From Bacteroidaceae bacterium (GTDB taxonomy: Bacteria; Bacteroidota; Bacteroidia; Bacteroidales; Bacteroidaceae): a DNA stretch of 43,205 nt. Both the position numbers and the translations under genes were made by a program. The DNA lies in NCBI GenBank assembly GCA_017554605.1, contig JAFZIA010000094.1:1-43205 (forward strand), in the 5' to 3' direction. Each line of letters begins with the position of its first letter. Within the stretch, counting starts at the first letter, position 1. The notes beneath the pieces are model-generated. The model was not told the origin of the DNA. It ran no database searches and was given only the letters and a program-made list of their open reading frames with translations. Positions 1-5,279 of the stretch are shown in pieces.

Positions 1-1407
1 ATCTTCGGGGCAGAATATATTGCGGTTCTTTATATGTTCATAACCATATATTGCACCCATAATATTACCGCATACTGAGCCAGTCGAATCGCTATCGCCA
101 TCGTGGTTAACCGATGCGATAATGGCATCTTCGACACTATCGATATGACGACTTACGCAATAGATTGCTATGGCAAGGGCTTCGTCTCCGACCCATCCTT
201 CACCCAATTGTGAAATTGCTTCAAGGTCGGAAATCTCTTCTTTAGCCAATTCTAAGGCTTTAAACATCATTGCTTGAAGTGGATATATAAACTCTTGCAT
301 GGAATTGAAGTATGCAATCATATAATGGCATGCGGTGCTGACTATATGTTCAAATTCCATTTTATCTATCCGTTTTGTTTGGGAACGGACCACAATCTCA
401 TAAATTATATGTGCTAGCAATCCTGCAGACAACCACCCTGCTGGATGCTCATGAGTAATCTTTGCGCACTCTGCTCCGAGTTTGATGACATATCCATCCC
501 TCCACTGTGGATTGTGGAATACAAATTGTCCCGCAGCAAGCAGTCCAACGGGTGCAACACGCATAACACCACCGCAACCTTTGCTATTATTGGAAGGTTC
601 CCTTCCTCGGGCAATCGCATCAAGTGCTGACATACACGTATTGCCTGGTGCTCGCCTTGAATACAATTCATCAATATCTCTTAACCAACAACTTTTACTT
701 TTGGTTTTATATACCCCAATCTGTGTATAATACCAATCTACATAAGCTCGAGCGACCGCAAATTGTGGCTGTACACTCAAGTAGTGAGCATTCAGCAAAC
801 CATTAGCTGTAAAGAGTGTCATCTGTGTATCGTCGCTGATGAGTGCCTTACCGTTATTGTCAAGAGCAAACTTGGTTATTCCATTCTCTCCAAAGCGAGA
901 GAAAATAGAGCGACGACTCATAAACTCAACCTCATATCCGAGTGCATCACCCACAGCACCCGCCATCAGACAACCACGAATTTTATCTCGCAAAATAGAT
1001 TCACCCGTTATATCAAATATAATACTCACGAAACTCTCGGGAAGAATAACATTTTCAGCATCAATAGCGGCTGCAAACAGCGGTGCAATATCCCCATCTC
1101 TAAAACCTGCGATACCACAACCAATCTTTGTCACCAAGAAAATAAACTCAGGGTGTAACTTTGCGAACGAAATGAACTCATCAACATAAGGTTTGATAGC
1201 ATCCACACCTCCGTGCATAGTTGGGATTGCATAGCACTGTCCCTGTAGTCCGACACCTTGACCCCAAACGGCTCCAAAACGATTATGAGCCAACCGAGCA
1301 GCTCCGCCACCGTGCGAACCAGCGAGGTTACTTCCAAACACAAAGATTTCGTTATTCTCTAAATGTGTAATTTTTTCGGGTGTAAATCTTCTATTATACA
1401 TATTCAT
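1..1407 (-). CDS. ADP-ribosylglycohydrolase fused to an N-terminal A1S_2505-like domain (3' end outside window)
   Basis: An open frame of 469 codons runs from the ATG at 1407 to base 1 without a stop, so the gene is cut by the window edge; a second ATG lies at 1401. Residues ~15-130 start with a glycine-rich IFVFGSNLAGSHGGGAA motif and continue with GQGVGLQGQCYAIPT, which I recall from small proteins named A1S_2505 phage non-structural protein; a macro-like nucleotide-binding role is inference. Residues ~140-469 are a DraG-type ADP-ribosylglycohydrolase: RGCLMAGAVGDALGYEVEF, the metal site SDDTQMT (D192/D193) and the second metal motif HDGDSDSTG (D436, D438, D440). Such enzymes hydrolyse ADP-ribose from proteins or small molecules. 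It lies 7 bases after the Nudix regulator gene, so it is the third gene of that operon. The DraG assignment is firm; the substrate is unknown. Confidence 0.85.
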   Translation of the reverse strand, partial: MNMYNRRFTPEKITHLENNEIFVFGSNLAGSHGGGAARLAHNRFGAVWGQGVGLQGQCYAIPTMHGGVDAIKPYVDEFISFAKLHPEFIFLVTKIGCGIAGFRDGDIAPLFAAAIDAENVILPESFVSIIFDITGESILRDKIRGCLMAGAVGDALGYEVEFMSRRSIFSRFGENGITKFALDNNGKALISDDTQMTLFTANGLLNAHYLSVQPQFAVARAYVDWYYTQIGVYKTKSKSCWLRDIDELYSRRAPGNTCMSALDAIARGREPSNNSKGCGGVMRVAPVGLLAAGQFVFHNPQWRDGYVIKLGAECAKITHEHPAGWLSAGLLAHIIYEIVVRSQTKRIDKMEFEHIVSTACHYMIAYFNSMQEFIYPLQAMMFKALELAKEEISDLEAISQLGEGWVGDEALAIAIYCVSRHIDSVEDAIIASVNHDGDSDSTGSVCGNIMGAIYGYEHIKNRNIFCPED

Positions 1408-1414
1408 AATGATA

Positions 1415-2107
1415 TTAAAATTCCAATCTAAATCCTTTTTGTTTCAGTTCGGCATACTTCTCGGCATTGAAGCGATACTTCGTTGGTGTGCGACGTGAGG
1501 CATTTGCGGGACGAGGCTCAGCCTCGATAAGAATACCGAGTTTGAGCATCTTGTTATAAAAGTTACGACGGTCAAACTTTACCTCCAGGATTGCTTCATA
1601 GAGGTTCTGCAGCTCGGTCATCGTAAAGAGCTCTGGCAGTAGCTCAAAGCCAATCGGCTCGAAGCAGATGCGCTCTTTTAGACGAGATAGAGCCATACGC
1701 AATATGCGGTCGTGGTCAAAGGCAAGGCTTGGGACAGTTTCCAAGTCGAACCATTTAGCAGATGCGGCATCATCACCACCTTTAACCTCCGATAGCTTTA
1801 CAAGAGCATAGTGAGCAACGGTTATTACTCGCTCACGAGGGTCGCGATTTACATCCGAGAAAGTATAGAACTGTTCAACCGAGGCATTCTTTAAGCCAGT
1901 TTCCTCTTCCAACTCTCGCTTCGCACACTCTTCGGCAGTCTCGTTCATCTTCATAAATCCTCCGGGGAATGCCCACTTTCCTTTGAATGGTTCAATTCCT
2001 CGCTGGATTAGAAGTACTTTAATTGCAACACCGTCAAAGCCGAAAATCACACAGTCGGCAGTAACCGAAGGGTGCGGATATTTATAACAAAATTGCTGTT
2101 CACTCAT
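1415..2107 (-). CDS. NrtR-type Nudix hydrolase/transcriptional regulator
   Basis: 230 aa. Residues ~10-140 form a Nudix domain with an intact box (GFMKMNETAEECAKRELEEE, followed by TGL), matching GX5EX7REUXEEXGU with every catalytic glutamate present. Residues ~150-230 look like the winged-helix DNA-binding half found in NrtR-family regulators (RRNFYNKMLKLGILIEAE, then a basic stretch and PTKYRFN). NrtR proteins are known repressors that sense ADP-ribose or related compounds through the Nudix fold. Because the box is intact, this one may also hydrolyse its ligand, which is inference. The ATG is 3 bases after the phosphatase-like gene's stop. Its neighbours (ADP-ribosylglycohydrolase, phosphatase-like) fit an ADP-ribose theme, and the palindrome at 2702-2718 is its probable operator. 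A sugar-type Nudix regulator is the alternative. Confidence 0.85.
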   Translation of the reverse strand: MSEQQFCYKYPHPSVTADCVIFGFDGVAIKVLLIQRGIEPFKGKWAFPGGFMKMNETAEECAKRELEEETGLKNASVEQFYTFSDVNRDPRERVITVAHYALVKLSEVKGGDDAASAKWFDLETVPSLAFDHDRILRMALSRLKERICFEPIGFELLPELFTMTELQNLYEAILEVKFDRRNFYNKMLKLGILIEAEPRPANASRRTPTKYRFNAEKYAELKQKGFRLEF

Positions 2108-2110
2108 AGT

Positions 2111-2695
2111 CTATATACTTGCTTTTGTTTTTGAATATTCAATCAACTCTTTTCTACGTAAGGCGAAGGTTGCCTTATCTGGAATGTCAATCAGTCTATT
2201 TTCAGTCAGATATTCATACAGGCTATTAAGCCTACGGAATATCTTGGCAGGATCGACACCTTTCCGTCCTGAATCAGGCATAGGGAAATGTCCTTTCAAA
2301 TATGGAGGTTGAAGGTTCCGGTCTGCTCCGTGAAACATCCAATAGATAGACAACGCCATATCTGTACGATGCAGTCCCATTGCACAAGCAATGTAGAAAT
2401 CCCCGCTGTCTATAATTTCAAATAGTTGCTGCAACTTGGGTGCAATCACTTCGTTGGGAACAGTATGACTATCCAGAGGAAAGGCAAAGTATTGAATACT
2501 GTTTTGCTTGCACAAACTGCAGAGCCTATCCGAATGGTCTCCATCACGCAACTCGACAACCGTCTTAACACCACTTTGAACTACGGTCTGCCAATGACGC
2601 AAGTTGTGACGAGATGAGAGTGTTGTACCTCTTACCCCGCCATAAACTGTATCTATATTCTCGATACACGTATTCAAAAGTAATCTTGCATCCAT
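2111..2695 (-). CDS. Tyrosine/dual-specificity phosphatase-like protein
   Basis: 194 aa from the ATG at 2695. A TTG eight codons upstream is also in frame but sits inside the operator palindrome and over the -7 box, so it was rejected. Residues ~15-125 resemble a small cysteine phosphatase: an early TVYGGVRGTTLSSR segment, a strand VKTVVELRDGDHSD, then the P-loop ACAMGLHRTD, which fits CX5R with Cys as nucleophile and Arg as phosphate binder. The C-terminal ~70 residues are helical. These enzymes remove phosphate from tyrosine or from small molecules such as nucleotides and ADP-ribose 1''-phosphate. First in the operon with the Nudix regulator and the ADP-ribosylglycohydrolase, so a small-molecule role in ADP-ribose metabolism is a reasonable inference. 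Family placement rests on the P-loop and overall layout. Confidence 0.65.
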   Translation of the reverse strand: MDARLLLNTCIENIDTVYGGVRGTTLSSRHNLRHWQTVVQSGVKTVVELRDGDHSDRLCSLCKQNSIQYFAFPLDSHTVPNEVIAPKLQQLFEIIDSGDFYIACAMGLHRTDMALSIYWMFHGADRNLQPPYLKGHFPMPDSGRKGVDPAKIFRRLNSLYEYLTENRLIDIPDKATFALRRKELIEYSKTKASI

Positions 2696-2701
2696 ACTTC
2701 G

Positions 2702-2718
2702 TGCGTAAATTATACGCA
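2702..2718. promoter_or_regulatory. Perfect palindrome, probable Nudix-regulator operator
   Basis: TGCGTA-AATTA-TACGCA is a perfect 6-5-6 inverted repeat, seven bases upstream of the phosphatase ATG. It overlaps the -7 box and the likely transcription start of the minus-strand promoter. A further half-site, TACGCAC (2765-2771), lies upstream of the -33 box and is the reverse complement of GTGCGTA at 2701-2707. The placement is ideal for repression by the Nudix regulator encoded in the same operon. The symmetry is seen directly; the identity of the bound protein is inferred. Confidence 0.65.
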
Positions 2719-2747
2719 AATATATTAACTATTTTTCAGACAACAAA
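2717..2747 (-). promoter_or_regulatory. Bacteroidetes-type promoter of the ADP-ribose operon
   Basis: On the minus strand TTTG (2747-2744), a 19-base spacer and TATATTTG (2724-2717) match the TTTG-N19-21-TAnnTTTG consensus of the primary Bacteroidetes sigma factor. Transcription would start near 2710, about 15 bases before the ATG at 2695. Confidence 0.65.
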
Positions 2748-2980
2748 ATTTCGTGTGTTATTTTTACGCACAAATATCATTATATATTAAATTCTATACA
2801 CTTCTAAGTTAAACATACCAAATCTTTGCCATAGTTATAACACTTAAAACATTTACATTATAGAGTCAGCAGAGATGCAATATCTATCAACAAAAAAGGA
2901 GAAAGTGCGTCCACCTTCTCCATTCTCCATCTTCTAACCACAGCGCTGAAGTCTTGCCTTTTCTCGGCAAGGCAGCCAAC

Positions 2981-3491: not shown

Positions 3492-3524
3492 AACATTTTT
3501 TAAAAACTTAAACAGCTTATAAAC
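3492..3524 (+). repeat. Dispersed intergenic repeat, copy 1
   Basis: AACATTTTTTAAAAACTTAA followed by ACAGCTTATAAAC. It matches copy 2 (43064-43096, opposite strand) at most positions. It overlaps the 3' end of the exopolysaccharide operon. Confidence 0.5.
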
Positions 3525-4312
3525 TATTCGACCTTCTTATAATGGAGTCTCTTGAGAAAGTTCAGTCCAAATAGTTTTATTATTATGCGCTTCACTGCAT
3601 CGAACGACCAGAAATAGTAGTAGCAGAATTTTGCAAGGAGCTTGCCTCCGCCGTTGTTGAGCACAATATGCTCAAGGTCGTAGCGCTTTTGGGGGATTGT
3701 GGCAACAGACACTCCACCCAGACGGAACTCGGCCACGTCAACAGGCATATATTTGAAGCGCGCACCGCCTTGATAGCATCGTGCAAGAAAATCGTGGTCC
3801 ATCATATAACGGAACCTAACGTCGTAGTAGCCCCATTTGCGGTGGGCATCGGCCGAGACAAATGTCCCTTGATGGTCGACGTTGACAAAGAAGGGCATAA
3901 GGGGGAATTTCATCGAGGGAATGTCGCGTCCCGAAAATCCCGTCTCCTTGTTGCGGATAATGACGTTACCGCGGTAAATGTCGATACCCTCCTCATAATA
4001 CTCGGCAACCTTCTCCAATGCTCCAGGCAGTAGAATATCGTCGCTGTTTATCATACACACAATATCGCCCTTGGCATTGCGCACACCTTTGTTGAACGCA
4101 TCGCTGATACCTTTATCGGGCTCGGAGCAGAAATACCCCAAGCGGCTCTCGTATTTTCTTATAATATCGACAGTGCCATCGGTGGAACCTCCGTCAATCA
4201 TCACATAATCGAGCAGAGGATAATTTTGCCCGAGCACACTCTTTATGGTTTCTTCTACTGTTGCTGCACTATTGAAACATATAGTCACAATTGATATTAC
4301 TGGTTTCTTCAT
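3524..4312 (-). CDS. Glycosyltransferase family 2
   Basis: 262 aa. The N-terminal half is a GT-A fold: VISIVTICFNSAATVEETIK, the nucleotide-sugar signature YVMIDGGSTDGT, and the metal-binding motif MINSDDILLPGAL. The remainder resembles WcaA/WcaE-like transferases of exopolysaccharide loci (DHQGTFVSADAHRKWGYYD). It would add one sugar to the undecaprenyl-linked repeat unit at the inner face of the membrane. Last gene of the exopolysaccharide operon, 15 bases after the preceding transferase gene. The sugar donor cannot be read from the sequence. Confidence 0.9.
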   Translation of the reverse strand: MKKPVISIVTICFNSAATVEETIKSVLGQNYPLLDYVMIDGGSTDGTVDIIRKYESRLGYFCSEPDKGISDAFNKGVRNAKGDIVCMINSDDILLPGALEKVAEYYEEGIDIYRGNVIIRNKETGFSGRDIPSMKFPLMPFFVNVDHQGTFVSADAHRKWGYYDVRFRYMMDHDFLARCYQGGARFKYMPVDVAEFRLGGVSVATIPQKRYDLEHIVLNNGGGKLLAKFCYYYFWSFDAVKRIIIKLFGLNFLKRLHYKKVE

Positions 4313-4327
4313 AGTCCAAGGGGGTAT

Positions 4328-5224
4328 TCAAAAAATTCCTAACAAAATAGATATTCTTCCCGATACATTTATAGACAGCGGCGCACAGCGCAACGCAGGG
4401 GCGAAGAGCAGACGAAGCCACGCTCCCACCCCACTGCGGTAATTCGCTGCAAGCTCGGTGAGTGTCCTGTTCTCGGGCGACATCTTGGTGGAGTAGCCTT
4501 TCAAAAGCTCGGCTGCGAGACGCGAACGGATATGCTCGTTCTTCTTTATTCGTTTCCAACGGTTCTTCCACACAAAAGAGGCCGAGTTTACTTGACCCAC
4601 CACATTGGCACTGTGCTGACGATAACTCATATGCGGTACTCTGTCGAAATGCACCGACGCTCCAATAGCCTGCGCCACATTGTATATCCATATATCGTGC
4701 ATACGTATGAATGCAGGCTTATAGCACAGCAGTTCCTCGCGCATTGCCCTGTTTATGACCATTGTACAGCCTGTAACAAAATGATACATAAGGGACTCGC
4801 CGTATGTGAGCAACGGGGAAATTGTAACACTCTCAATCTCCTTGAGGTTCTCGTCGACAAGGCGTGTCTGACAGAAATATACAGCAGGACGGTCACCGTC
4901 GCCGCGCATAGCCTCGGCTGCAACAGCAAGCTTGTCGCTGTCCCAACAGTCGTCCTGGTCGCAAAAGGCATAATAGTCGCTGTCACCGGCACTCTCAAGC
5001 AGGTTCCAGAAGCTGTACGCCGGACCGAGATTCTCGCCCGTATACCACTGCAGACGCCCTGCACGCTGCTCATCGTCGAGAAGCGCCTGCGTAGCATCGG
5101 TTGAACCGTCGTCGCGCACAAGCAGACTCACCTTAACCCCTTTTTGCCTATATATCGATTGCAACTGCTCGCCAATATAGCGTGTACCGTTGTATGTCGA
5201 CATTAAAACCTGAACACTCTTCAT
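4328..5224 (-). CDS. Glycosyltransferase family 2 (rhamnosyltransferase-like)
   Basis: 298 aa from the ATG at 5224; a possible start eleven codons earlier lacks support because the protein aligned from MKSVQVLMSTYNGTRYIGEQ begins as this family usually does. The nucleotide-binding motif LLVRDDGSTDATQALL and the metal-binding YYAFCDQDDCW are clear. The C-terminal part (GCTMVINRAMREELLCYKPA, then HDIWIY) resembles rhamnosyl- or alpha-1,3-type transferases. It probably adds the second or third sugar of the exopolysaccharide repeat. Follows the EpsG-like gene by 55 bases. Confidence 0.88.
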   Translation of the reverse strand: MKSVQVLMSTYNGTRYIGEQLQSIYRQKGVKVSLLVRDDGSTDATQALLDDEQRAGRLQWYTGENLGPAYSFWNLLESAGDSDYYAFCDQDDCWDSDKLAVAAEAMRGDGDRPAVYFCQTRLVDENLKEIESVTISPLLTYGESLMYHFVTGCTMVINRAMREELLCYKPAFIRMHDIWIYNVAQAIGASVHFDRVPHMSYRQHSANVVGQVNSASFVWKNRWKRIKKNEHIRSRLAAELLKGYSTKMSPENRTLTELAANYRSGVGAWLRLLFAPALRCAPLSINVSGRISILLGIF

Positions 5225-5279
5225 ATCAAATATATCATTTTCCTGTAGAATATGCAAAAATACTGAAAAAAGCGGACTT

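What the first reader, a model, noticed from the sequence alone, without database searches (positions are those of the whole stretch)
1..2771. Self-regulated ADP-ribose operon: phosphatase-like, Nudix regulator and fused glycohydrolase
Three tightly packed genes share an ADP-ribose theme: a CX5R phosphatase-like protein, an NrtR-type Nudix regulator with an intact catalytic box, and a DraG-type glycohydrolase fused to an A1S_2505-like domain. NrtR regulators and DraG enzymes are established families. The joint system, with a phosphatase in first place, suggests removal of phosphate from an ADP-ribose compound followed by hydrolysis, controlled by its own ligand.
Basis: partly seen in the sequence, partly recalled or inferred. 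Interest (0 to 1): 0.72.

Follow-up and report, generated by a model that had tools for sequence, protein, structure and literature searches.

The report
ADP-ribose removal genes with self-regulating repressor
Some gut bacteria related to Bacteroides carry small gene sets that look built to clean up ADP-ribose, switched by a repressor that probably senses ADP-ribose and may also destroy it; this kind of gene set was predicted in 2022, and what is added here is the DNA switch.

Summary
The three genes are real, on the minus strand: a CX5R phosphatase-like gene (2695-2111), an NrtR-type Nudix regulator (2107-1415), and an A1S_2505 domain fused to an ADP-ribosylglycohydrolase (ARG; 1407-1), cut by the contig end. 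In 31 relatives of the regulator, 18 share a same-strand gene run with ARG, phosphatase, A1S_2505, NADAR or VWA genes; none lies near arabinose genes, whereas all 20 paralogue loci checked do. NrtR plus ARG plus phosphatase occurs in 4 of 31, three times with phosphatase and ARG fused. Main new result: two 17-bp palindromes (TGYGTAAAWTTTACRCA) about 52-55 bp apart flank a Bacteroidota promoter in fixed register. A scan of 107 loci found 33 such arrangements (reversed control 0), 30 directly before a gene of this set, some unlinked to the regulator. The Nudix catalytic box is intact in 26 of 31 clade regulators and 0 of 19 paralogues, so the repressor may destroy its inducer. The gene combination was predicted in 2022 (Iyer et al., 'ARG-centric' systems), so this is a Bacteroidota variant of a predicted, untested kind.

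The parts
2754..2770 (-). Upstream operator box, read on the minus strand TGCGTAAAAATAACACA
   Evidence: 10 of 12 arm positions match TGCGTA-N5-TACGCA; one of only two zero-mismatch sites for TGYGTWAWTTWTACGCA in the whole own genome
2744..2747 (-). Putative -33 element TTTG
   Evidence: Between the two operators, 19 bp from the -7 element; consensus from passages of PMC7366714
2717..2724 (-). Putative -7 element TATATTTG; its last two bases are the first two of the downstream operator
   Evidence: Full match to TAnnTTTG; same register in 24 of 25 twin-box loci at 9/10 or better
2702..2718 (-). Downstream operator box TGCGTATAATTTACGCA, 52 bp from the first
   Evidence: 12 of 12 arm positions; second zero-mismatch site of the own genome
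2111..2695 (-). P0003, CX5R phosphatase-like protein of the rhodanese-phosphatase/DSP type, 194 aa
1415..2107 (-). P0002, NrtR-family regulator: Nudix domain with intact catalytic box plus NrtR winged helix, 230 aa
1003..1407 (-). A1S_2505 N-terminal domain of P0001 (fold and function unknown)
   Evidence: NF049995, 143.5 bits against a cut-off of 45; no Pfam family at E up to 1
1..1002 (-). ADP-ribosylglycohydrolase domain of P0001, cut by the contig end
   Evidence: PF03747, E 8.6e-65, nearly the whole profile; GDALG, DDTQM and GDSDSTG motifs at residues 153, 192 and 437

Best explanation
This is a self-repressed ADP-ribose removal operon, a Bacteroidota form of the 'ARG-centric' systems predicted by Iyer et al. 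2022. Two dimers of the NrtR-type repressor bind the twin operators that bracket the promoter and keep the operon off. When ADP-ribose (or a close NAD-derived relative) builds up, it binds the Nudix domain and releases the DNA. The ARG domain then frees ADP-ribose from modified targets or from O-acyl-ADP-ribose; the phosphatase-like protein trims a phosphate from an ADP-ribose derivative or its breakdown product; and the repressor's own intact Nudix site may split ADP-ribose and so reset the switch. Shown by sequence: the genes, families, operator and promoter architecture, the recurrence of the regulator with these families in cis and in trans, and the split from arabinose regulators. Inferred from families: repression, ADP-ribose as ligand, ARG activity. 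Only conjecture: the phosphatase substrate and the self-resetting step.
For: Family assignments. Same-strand runs of 31 clade loci: ARG 11, A1S_2505 8, phosphatase 6, NADAR 1, VWA 2, any of the set 18; arabinose genes 0 of 31 against 20 of 20 paralogue loci, and no paralogue run holds a gene of the set. Box of at least 10/12 in 22 of 31 clade upstream regions, 0 of 19 paralogues, 0.65% of shuffles. Twin boxes plus promoter: 33 in 1.42 Mb, reversed control 0; promoter at 9/10 or better in 24 of 25 twin-box loci, against 0.5% of shuffles and 0.66% of 914 real upstream windows. Unlinked target genes with boxes in genomes whose regulator stands alone: L048 and L054 (ARG), L179 and L180 (VWA-A1S_2505), L184 (NMNAT-NADAR, single box). 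Cultured isolate: Prevotella sp. E2-28 plasmid with sigma factor, ARG, regulator and DUF1810 genes behind twin boxes. Intact Nudix box 26 of 31 against 0 of 19. Phosphatase fused to a Tpt1/KptA domain in L062. MsNrtR binds ADP-ribose (PMC6800001 passages).
Against: No biochemistry. 13 of 31 clade regulators have no gene of the set in their same-strand run, and 6 of 31 have no box of 9/12 or better. Two of 22 genomes (G303, G333) have no genome-wide match to the motif pattern. In the own genome no second target was found; of the further pattern places only C8, C29 and C47 were fetched, and none shows a gene of the set. The equivalog model for ADP-ribose-responsive NrtR is far below its cut-off (148 against 400 bits). 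The closest solved relative is the arabinose regulator AraR. Sirtuin genes lie near ARG or phosphatase in L002 and L057, which fits OAADPr chemistry but not the 'no coupled enzyme' template of Iyer et al.
Confidence: 0.62

Rival explanations
1. The operon belongs to general NAD homeostasis: the NrtR-type repressor reads ADP-ribose as a sign of NAD turnover, and its targets recycle NAD breakdown products rather than reverse ADP-ribosylation.
For: Known NrtR repressors control NAD metabolism (PMC4666351 and PMC6800001, passages). A regulon member fuses a cytidylyltransferase-like (NMNAT-type) domain to NADAR (L102; L184). A 49%-identical regulator in Leptospira interrogans is followed by nadE.
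Against: NMNAT-type genes occur in 1 of 31 clade runs, ARG in 11 of 31 and A1S_2505 in 8 of 31. The nadE neighbour is one record outside the clade.
Confidence: 0.2
2. The regulator is an arabinose or xylose regulator of the AraR/XylR type and the enzymes are bystanders.
For: AraR is the best solved-structure hit (5bs6, E 1.7e-47), and B. thetaiotaomicron NrtR-family proteins AraR and XylR control pentose use (PMC3878776 passages).
Against: Separate clade (100/98); arabinose genes near 0 of 31 clade loci and 20 of 20 paralogue loci; different operator (0 of 19 paralogues with a box of 10/12); Nudix box intact in 26 of 31 against 0 of 19.
Confidence: 0.03
3. The phosphatase-like protein works on RNA ends or proteins, and its place beside ARG reflects a broader damage-repair island rather than a shared metabolite pathway.
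For: Related phosphatases lie in long islands with Tpt1/KptA, PP2C, RelA-like, AAA and LMW-phosphatase genes (L003, L004, L061, L063-L065). The Tpt1/KptA fusion (L062) and solved relatives such as a polynucleotide 5'-phosphatase (1yn9) fit RNA repair.
Against: Three NrtR-linked genes fuse phosphatase and ARG in one protein (L046, L047, L049), which favours a common substrate chain.
Confidence: 0.3

Closest known systems
ARG-centric systems of Iyer et al. 2022 (PMC9503650, section 3.8 read in full)
   Same: ADP-ribosylglycohydrolase core, Nudix-HTH (NrtR-like) repressor, rhodanese-phosphatase beside or fused to ARG, vWA and YbjN-type proteins, NADAR; ADP-ribose-triggered derepression was proposed there
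   Different: Lineages named there are actinobacteria, planctomycetes and proteobacteria ('bacteroid' has 0 occurrences in the main text). Here: Bacteroidales, A1S_2505 partner, a defined twin operator around the promoter, unlinked regulon members and an intact Nudix box, none of which the section describes. Prediction only, there and here.
NrtR repressors of NAD metabolism (MsNrtR; PMC6800001 passages)
   Same: Nudix plus winged helix; ADP-ribose as ligand (expected here)
   Different: MsNrtR has a mutated Nudix motif and no detectable ADPR hydrolysis; here the motif is intact in 26 of 31, and the targets are ADP-ribose-processing genes
AraR of Bacteroides (PMC4666351 passages)
   Same: Same family and phylum; tandem operators are reported there too (separated by 3 bp or 42 nt)
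   Different: 21-bp motif, arabinose ligand, impaired Nudix motif, ara operon

Membership tests
NrtR family (Nudix + NrtR winged helix) | Nudix domain and NrtR winged-helix domain in one protein | tested here: met
   PF00293 80.2 bits (cut-off 21.1) and PF21906 71.5 bits (cut-off 27)
NrtR, ADP-ribose-responsive equivalog (NF050029) | Score above the curated cut-off of 400 bits | tested here: not met
   148.2 bits
NrtR, ADP-ribose-responsive | ADP-ribose releases the protein from its operator | not testable with these tools
   Needs binding assays
AraR/XylR pentose regulators | Lies in a pentose operon and in the AraR branch | tested here: not met
   0 of 31 clade loci against 20 of 20 paralogue loci with ara-type genes; separate branch 100/98
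ARG-centric system (Iyer et al. 2022) | ARG domain with catalytic motifs | tested here: met
   PF03747, motifs
ARG-centric system (Iyer et al. 2022) | Nudix or WYL repressor tightly linked | tested here: met
   P0002 adjacent; 11 of 31 clade loci with ARG in the run
ARG-centric system (Iyer et al. 2022) | Rhodanese-phosphatase beside or fused to ARG | tested here: met
   Window, L046, L047 and L049; P0003 itself is sub-threshold in Pfam
ARG-centric system (Iyer et al. 2022) | No coupled ADP-ribosyltransferase or sirtuin | tested here: inconclusive
   Operon cut by the contig end; no ART search was made; SIR2 genes lie near the set in L002 and L057
ARG-centric system (Iyer et al. 2022) | Protects against viral ADP-ribosylation | not testable with these tools
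   A prediction in that paper; needs phage challenge
DraG equivalog (TIGR02662) | Score above the curated cut-off of 337 bits | tested here: not met
   65.2 bits
Cysteine phosphatase (DSP/rhodanese-phosphatase) | CX5R loop | tested here: met
   C104, R110 and T111 invariant in 18 aligned sequences
Cysteine phosphatase (DSP/rhodanese-phosphatase) | Predicted fold | not tested

The most novel reading that the evidence does not exclude
The repressor is also an ADP-ribose pyrophosphatase: it senses the product of the enzymes it controls and destroys it, giving a self-terminating pulse of ADP-ribose clean-up. This would be a regulator class with one site serving as both sensor and sink, spread over a Bacteroidales regulon that swaps its enzymes (ARG, ARG-phosphatase fusions, NADAR, A1S_2505) while keeping the same twin operator around the promoter.
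Probability: 0.35. Interest if true: 0.7.

Novelty: new variant of a known kind. Interest (0 to 1): 0.5.

Why it matters
If right, it gives a predicted but untested class of ADP-ribose-reversal systems a concrete, testable switch in Bacteroidales: a defined operator that marks every member gene, also where genes are unlinked, so the regulon can be read from sequence and its inducer found by a simple reporter. It would also offer a repressor that keeps the catalytic motif that other NrtR proteins have lost, and a genetic handle on what A1S_2505 and DUF1810 domains do.

Tried and rejected
Sugar-regulator reading: rejected on operator, neighbours and tree. Phosphatase-first as a conserved order: rejected. 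Phage origin of the trio: P0003 has no match among 50,697 phage records; P0001 matches 323 records but none over 80% of its length, with matches to one half or the other among the 20 listed. A1S_2505 as a Macro relative: a profile comparison with three Macro domains gave probability 0.2%; the Macro alignment was thin, so the idea is neither shown nor excluded. The only solved-structure hit for A1S_2505 was a spurious 0.0034 match.

Limits of the counts. The 31 clade loci are regulators with 57-100% identity to P0002 over nearly the full length; lower or partial hits (L125-L131, L156-L164 and others) were left out of those counts, as was L058, where only a 103-aa fragment remains. 20 paralogue loci were fetched; L145, which holds two copies, was left out (hence 19) but is. 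In one search the upstream region of the first operon gene was used for the window and L102. The weight matrix was trained on sites from the clade loci, and L179-L184 were fetched because of motif matches, so these are not independent; L048, L054, L125-L127 and L189 were fetched for other reasons. The spacing was limited to 50-57; it was free (20 loci with two boxes of 9/12 or better, 50-56 bp). For L123 and L124 the strict Nudix pattern fails because of an insertion.

Papers: PMC9503650 section 3.8 read in full and passages; passages only of PMC4666351, PMC3878776, PMC7366714 and PMC6800001; all others seen only as listings. Searches for prior description of the operator or of a Bacteroidota ADP-ribose regulon; nothing found in that library, which lacks most subscription papers (Rodionov 2008 is not held).
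Full report
What is there. The window is a complete contig of a 2.48-Mb metagenome assembly of a Bacteroidales organism (the related loci are titled Bacteroidaceae, Lentimicrobiaceae and Bacteroidales). At its left end three minus-strand genes follow each other with gaps of 3 and 7 bp: P0003 (phosphatase-like), P0002 (NrtR-type) and P0001 (A1S_2505 + ARG). P0001 runs off the contig. Pfam and NCBIfam support Nudix, NrtR winged helix, ADP_ribosyl_GH and A1S_2505 above cut-offs; the phosphatase is below cut-off in Pfam but has the CX5R loop, and a profile of it and 17 relatives hits solved dual-specificity phosphatases. The ARG motifs GDALG, DDTQM and GDSDSTG are present.

How common the genes are. 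P0003 matched 3 of 295 genomes of the order (two of them weakly) and 8 of 151 of the family; P0001 matched 80 of 151, mostly through the A1S_2505 half; P0002 matched 99 of 151 at E 1e-30 or better, many of them arabinose-type paralogues. In that family draw 2 of 9 same-genus genomes (the own one and G407) have the regulator, so the set is patchy.

The regulator clade and its neighbours. 31 loci hold a regulator with 57-100% identity over nearly its whole length. In their same-strand runs (gaps under 250 bp) ARG occurs in 11, A1S_2505 in 8, phosphatase in 6, DUF1810 in 5, gp30.3/NADAR-like in 3, VWA in 2, NADAR with NMNAT in 1, any of them in 18; regulator, ARG and phosphatase together in 4 (window, L046, L047, L049). 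13 have none, though in L108 and L117 such a gene follows after a longer gap. Ara-type genes: 0 of 31, against 20 of 20 paralogue loci, where 19 have araA. The tree puts the 31 and the paralogues on two sides of a 100/98 branch. The closest regulators have different partners: L101 (89%) ARG alone, L102 (84%, same genus) NADAR and NMNAT-NADAR. Regulator and operator stay while the enzymes change.

The switch. Upstream of P0003 two copies of a 17-bp palindrome lie 52 bp apart. A box of at least 10/12 occurs in 22 of 31 clade upstream regions, 0 of 19 paralogues and 0.65% of shuffles; at 9/12 the figures are 25 of 31, 1 of 19 and 7.8%. Twenty loci have two such boxes, spaced 50-56 bp with no limit set. 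Between the boxes lies a promoter of the Bacteroidota type (TTTG, 19-20 bp, TAnnTTTG; consensus from PMC7366714 passages) whose -7 element abuts or overlaps the downstream box: at 9/10 or better in 24 of 25 twin-box loci, at 10/10 in 19 of 25, against 0.5% and 0.06% of shuffles and 0.66% and 0.11% of 914 real upstream windows. A scan for the whole arrangement over 107 loci (1.42 Mb) gave 33, with 0 in reversed sequence: 23 before a regulator (one a 103-aa fragment), 3 before ARG, 2 before VWA-A1S_2505, 1 before NMNAT-NADAR, 1 before the phosphatase (window), 1 before a sigma-factor gene followed by ARG and regulator (Prevotella sp. E2-28), and 2 before genes of unknown kind (L181, L182). In the own genome only the two operon sites match the strict pattern without mismatch; at two mismatches the genome total (6) is near the control (5).

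Action at a distance. In genomes G420, G335, G309 and G374 the regulator has no gene of the set in its run, but unlinked ARG, A1S_2505-VWA or NADAR genes carry boxes: L048, L054, L180 and L184 (single box), L179. This ties these families to one regulon independently of gene order. Two of 22 genomes searched had no match to the genome-wide pattern (G303, G333).

Intact Nudix box. The motif GX5EX7REUXEEXGU is intact in 26 of 31 clade regulators and 0 of 19 paralogues. Passages of PMC4666351 state that it is impaired in NrtR regulators of NAD metabolism and in AraR, and PMC6800001 reports no detectable ADPR hydrolysis by MsNrtR. Selection seems to have kept catalysis here; whether the protein hydrolyses ADP-ribose is untested.

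The phosphatase. The phosphatase-first layout was seen only in the window.

What is known. Iyer et al. 2022 (section 3.8) describe ARG-centred systems with Nudix or WYL repressors, rhodanese-phosphatases, vWA and YbjN-type chaperones and NADAR, and propose ADP-ribose-triggered derepression against viral ADP-ribosylation. The present operon fits that template in its core. The additions here are the Bacteroidales form, the A1S_2505 partner, the twin operator around the promoter, the unlinked regulon and the conserved catalytic box. Five literature searches found no earlier description of these in the held library. An antiviral role was not tested.

Verdict. A real, coherent operon of a predicted kind, with a newly defined switch; mechanism likely in outline, enzymology open.

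Noticed in passing
L003, L004, L051, L061, L063, L064, L065: Long same-strand islands combine A1S_2505, gp30.3/NADAR-like, phosphatase, LMW-phosphatase, PP2C, AAA, YbjN-like, VWA and WG-repeat genes, some with Tpt1/KptA or RelA-like genes; they look like a larger ADP-ribose or stress toolkit.
   Followed up: partly
L063:8604-9152 and relatives (cluster C4): A conserved family of about 180 aa recurs in these islands with no Pfam hit; GHG and WC motifs recall caspase-like proteases by eye only.
   Followed up: no
L062:3777-5030: A relative of P0003 fused to a Tpt1/KptA RNA 2'-phosphotransferase domain.
   Followed up: partly
L179:4875-6173, L180:4317-5597: VWA-A1S_2505 fusion genes behind twin operators, unlinked to the regulator.
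   Followed up: yes
L189:6302-10489 (Prevotella sp. E2-28 plasmid): A cultured isolate's plasmid carries twin boxes before sigma factor, ARG, regulator, DUF6717 and two DUF1810 genes.
   Followed up: yes
L191 (Leptospira interrogans plasmid p1): A 49%-identical regulator is followed by nadE; a TIR-domain gene lies nearby.
   Followed up: no
L131, L156, L160: Nudix relatives lacking a matching C-terminal domain are followed by a protein with a HAD-like FDMDGVLFDS motif (motif by eye).
   Followed up: no
G000 and 18 same-genus genomes: No Macro domain (PF01661) match in 19 of 19 same-genus genomes, some incomplete; 3 of 12 other genomes of the order have one.
   Followed up: no
window 3524-5257: The neighbouring genes look by eye like glycosyltransferases of a surface-polysaccharide cluster, apparently unrelated to the operon (not searched).
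   Followed up: no
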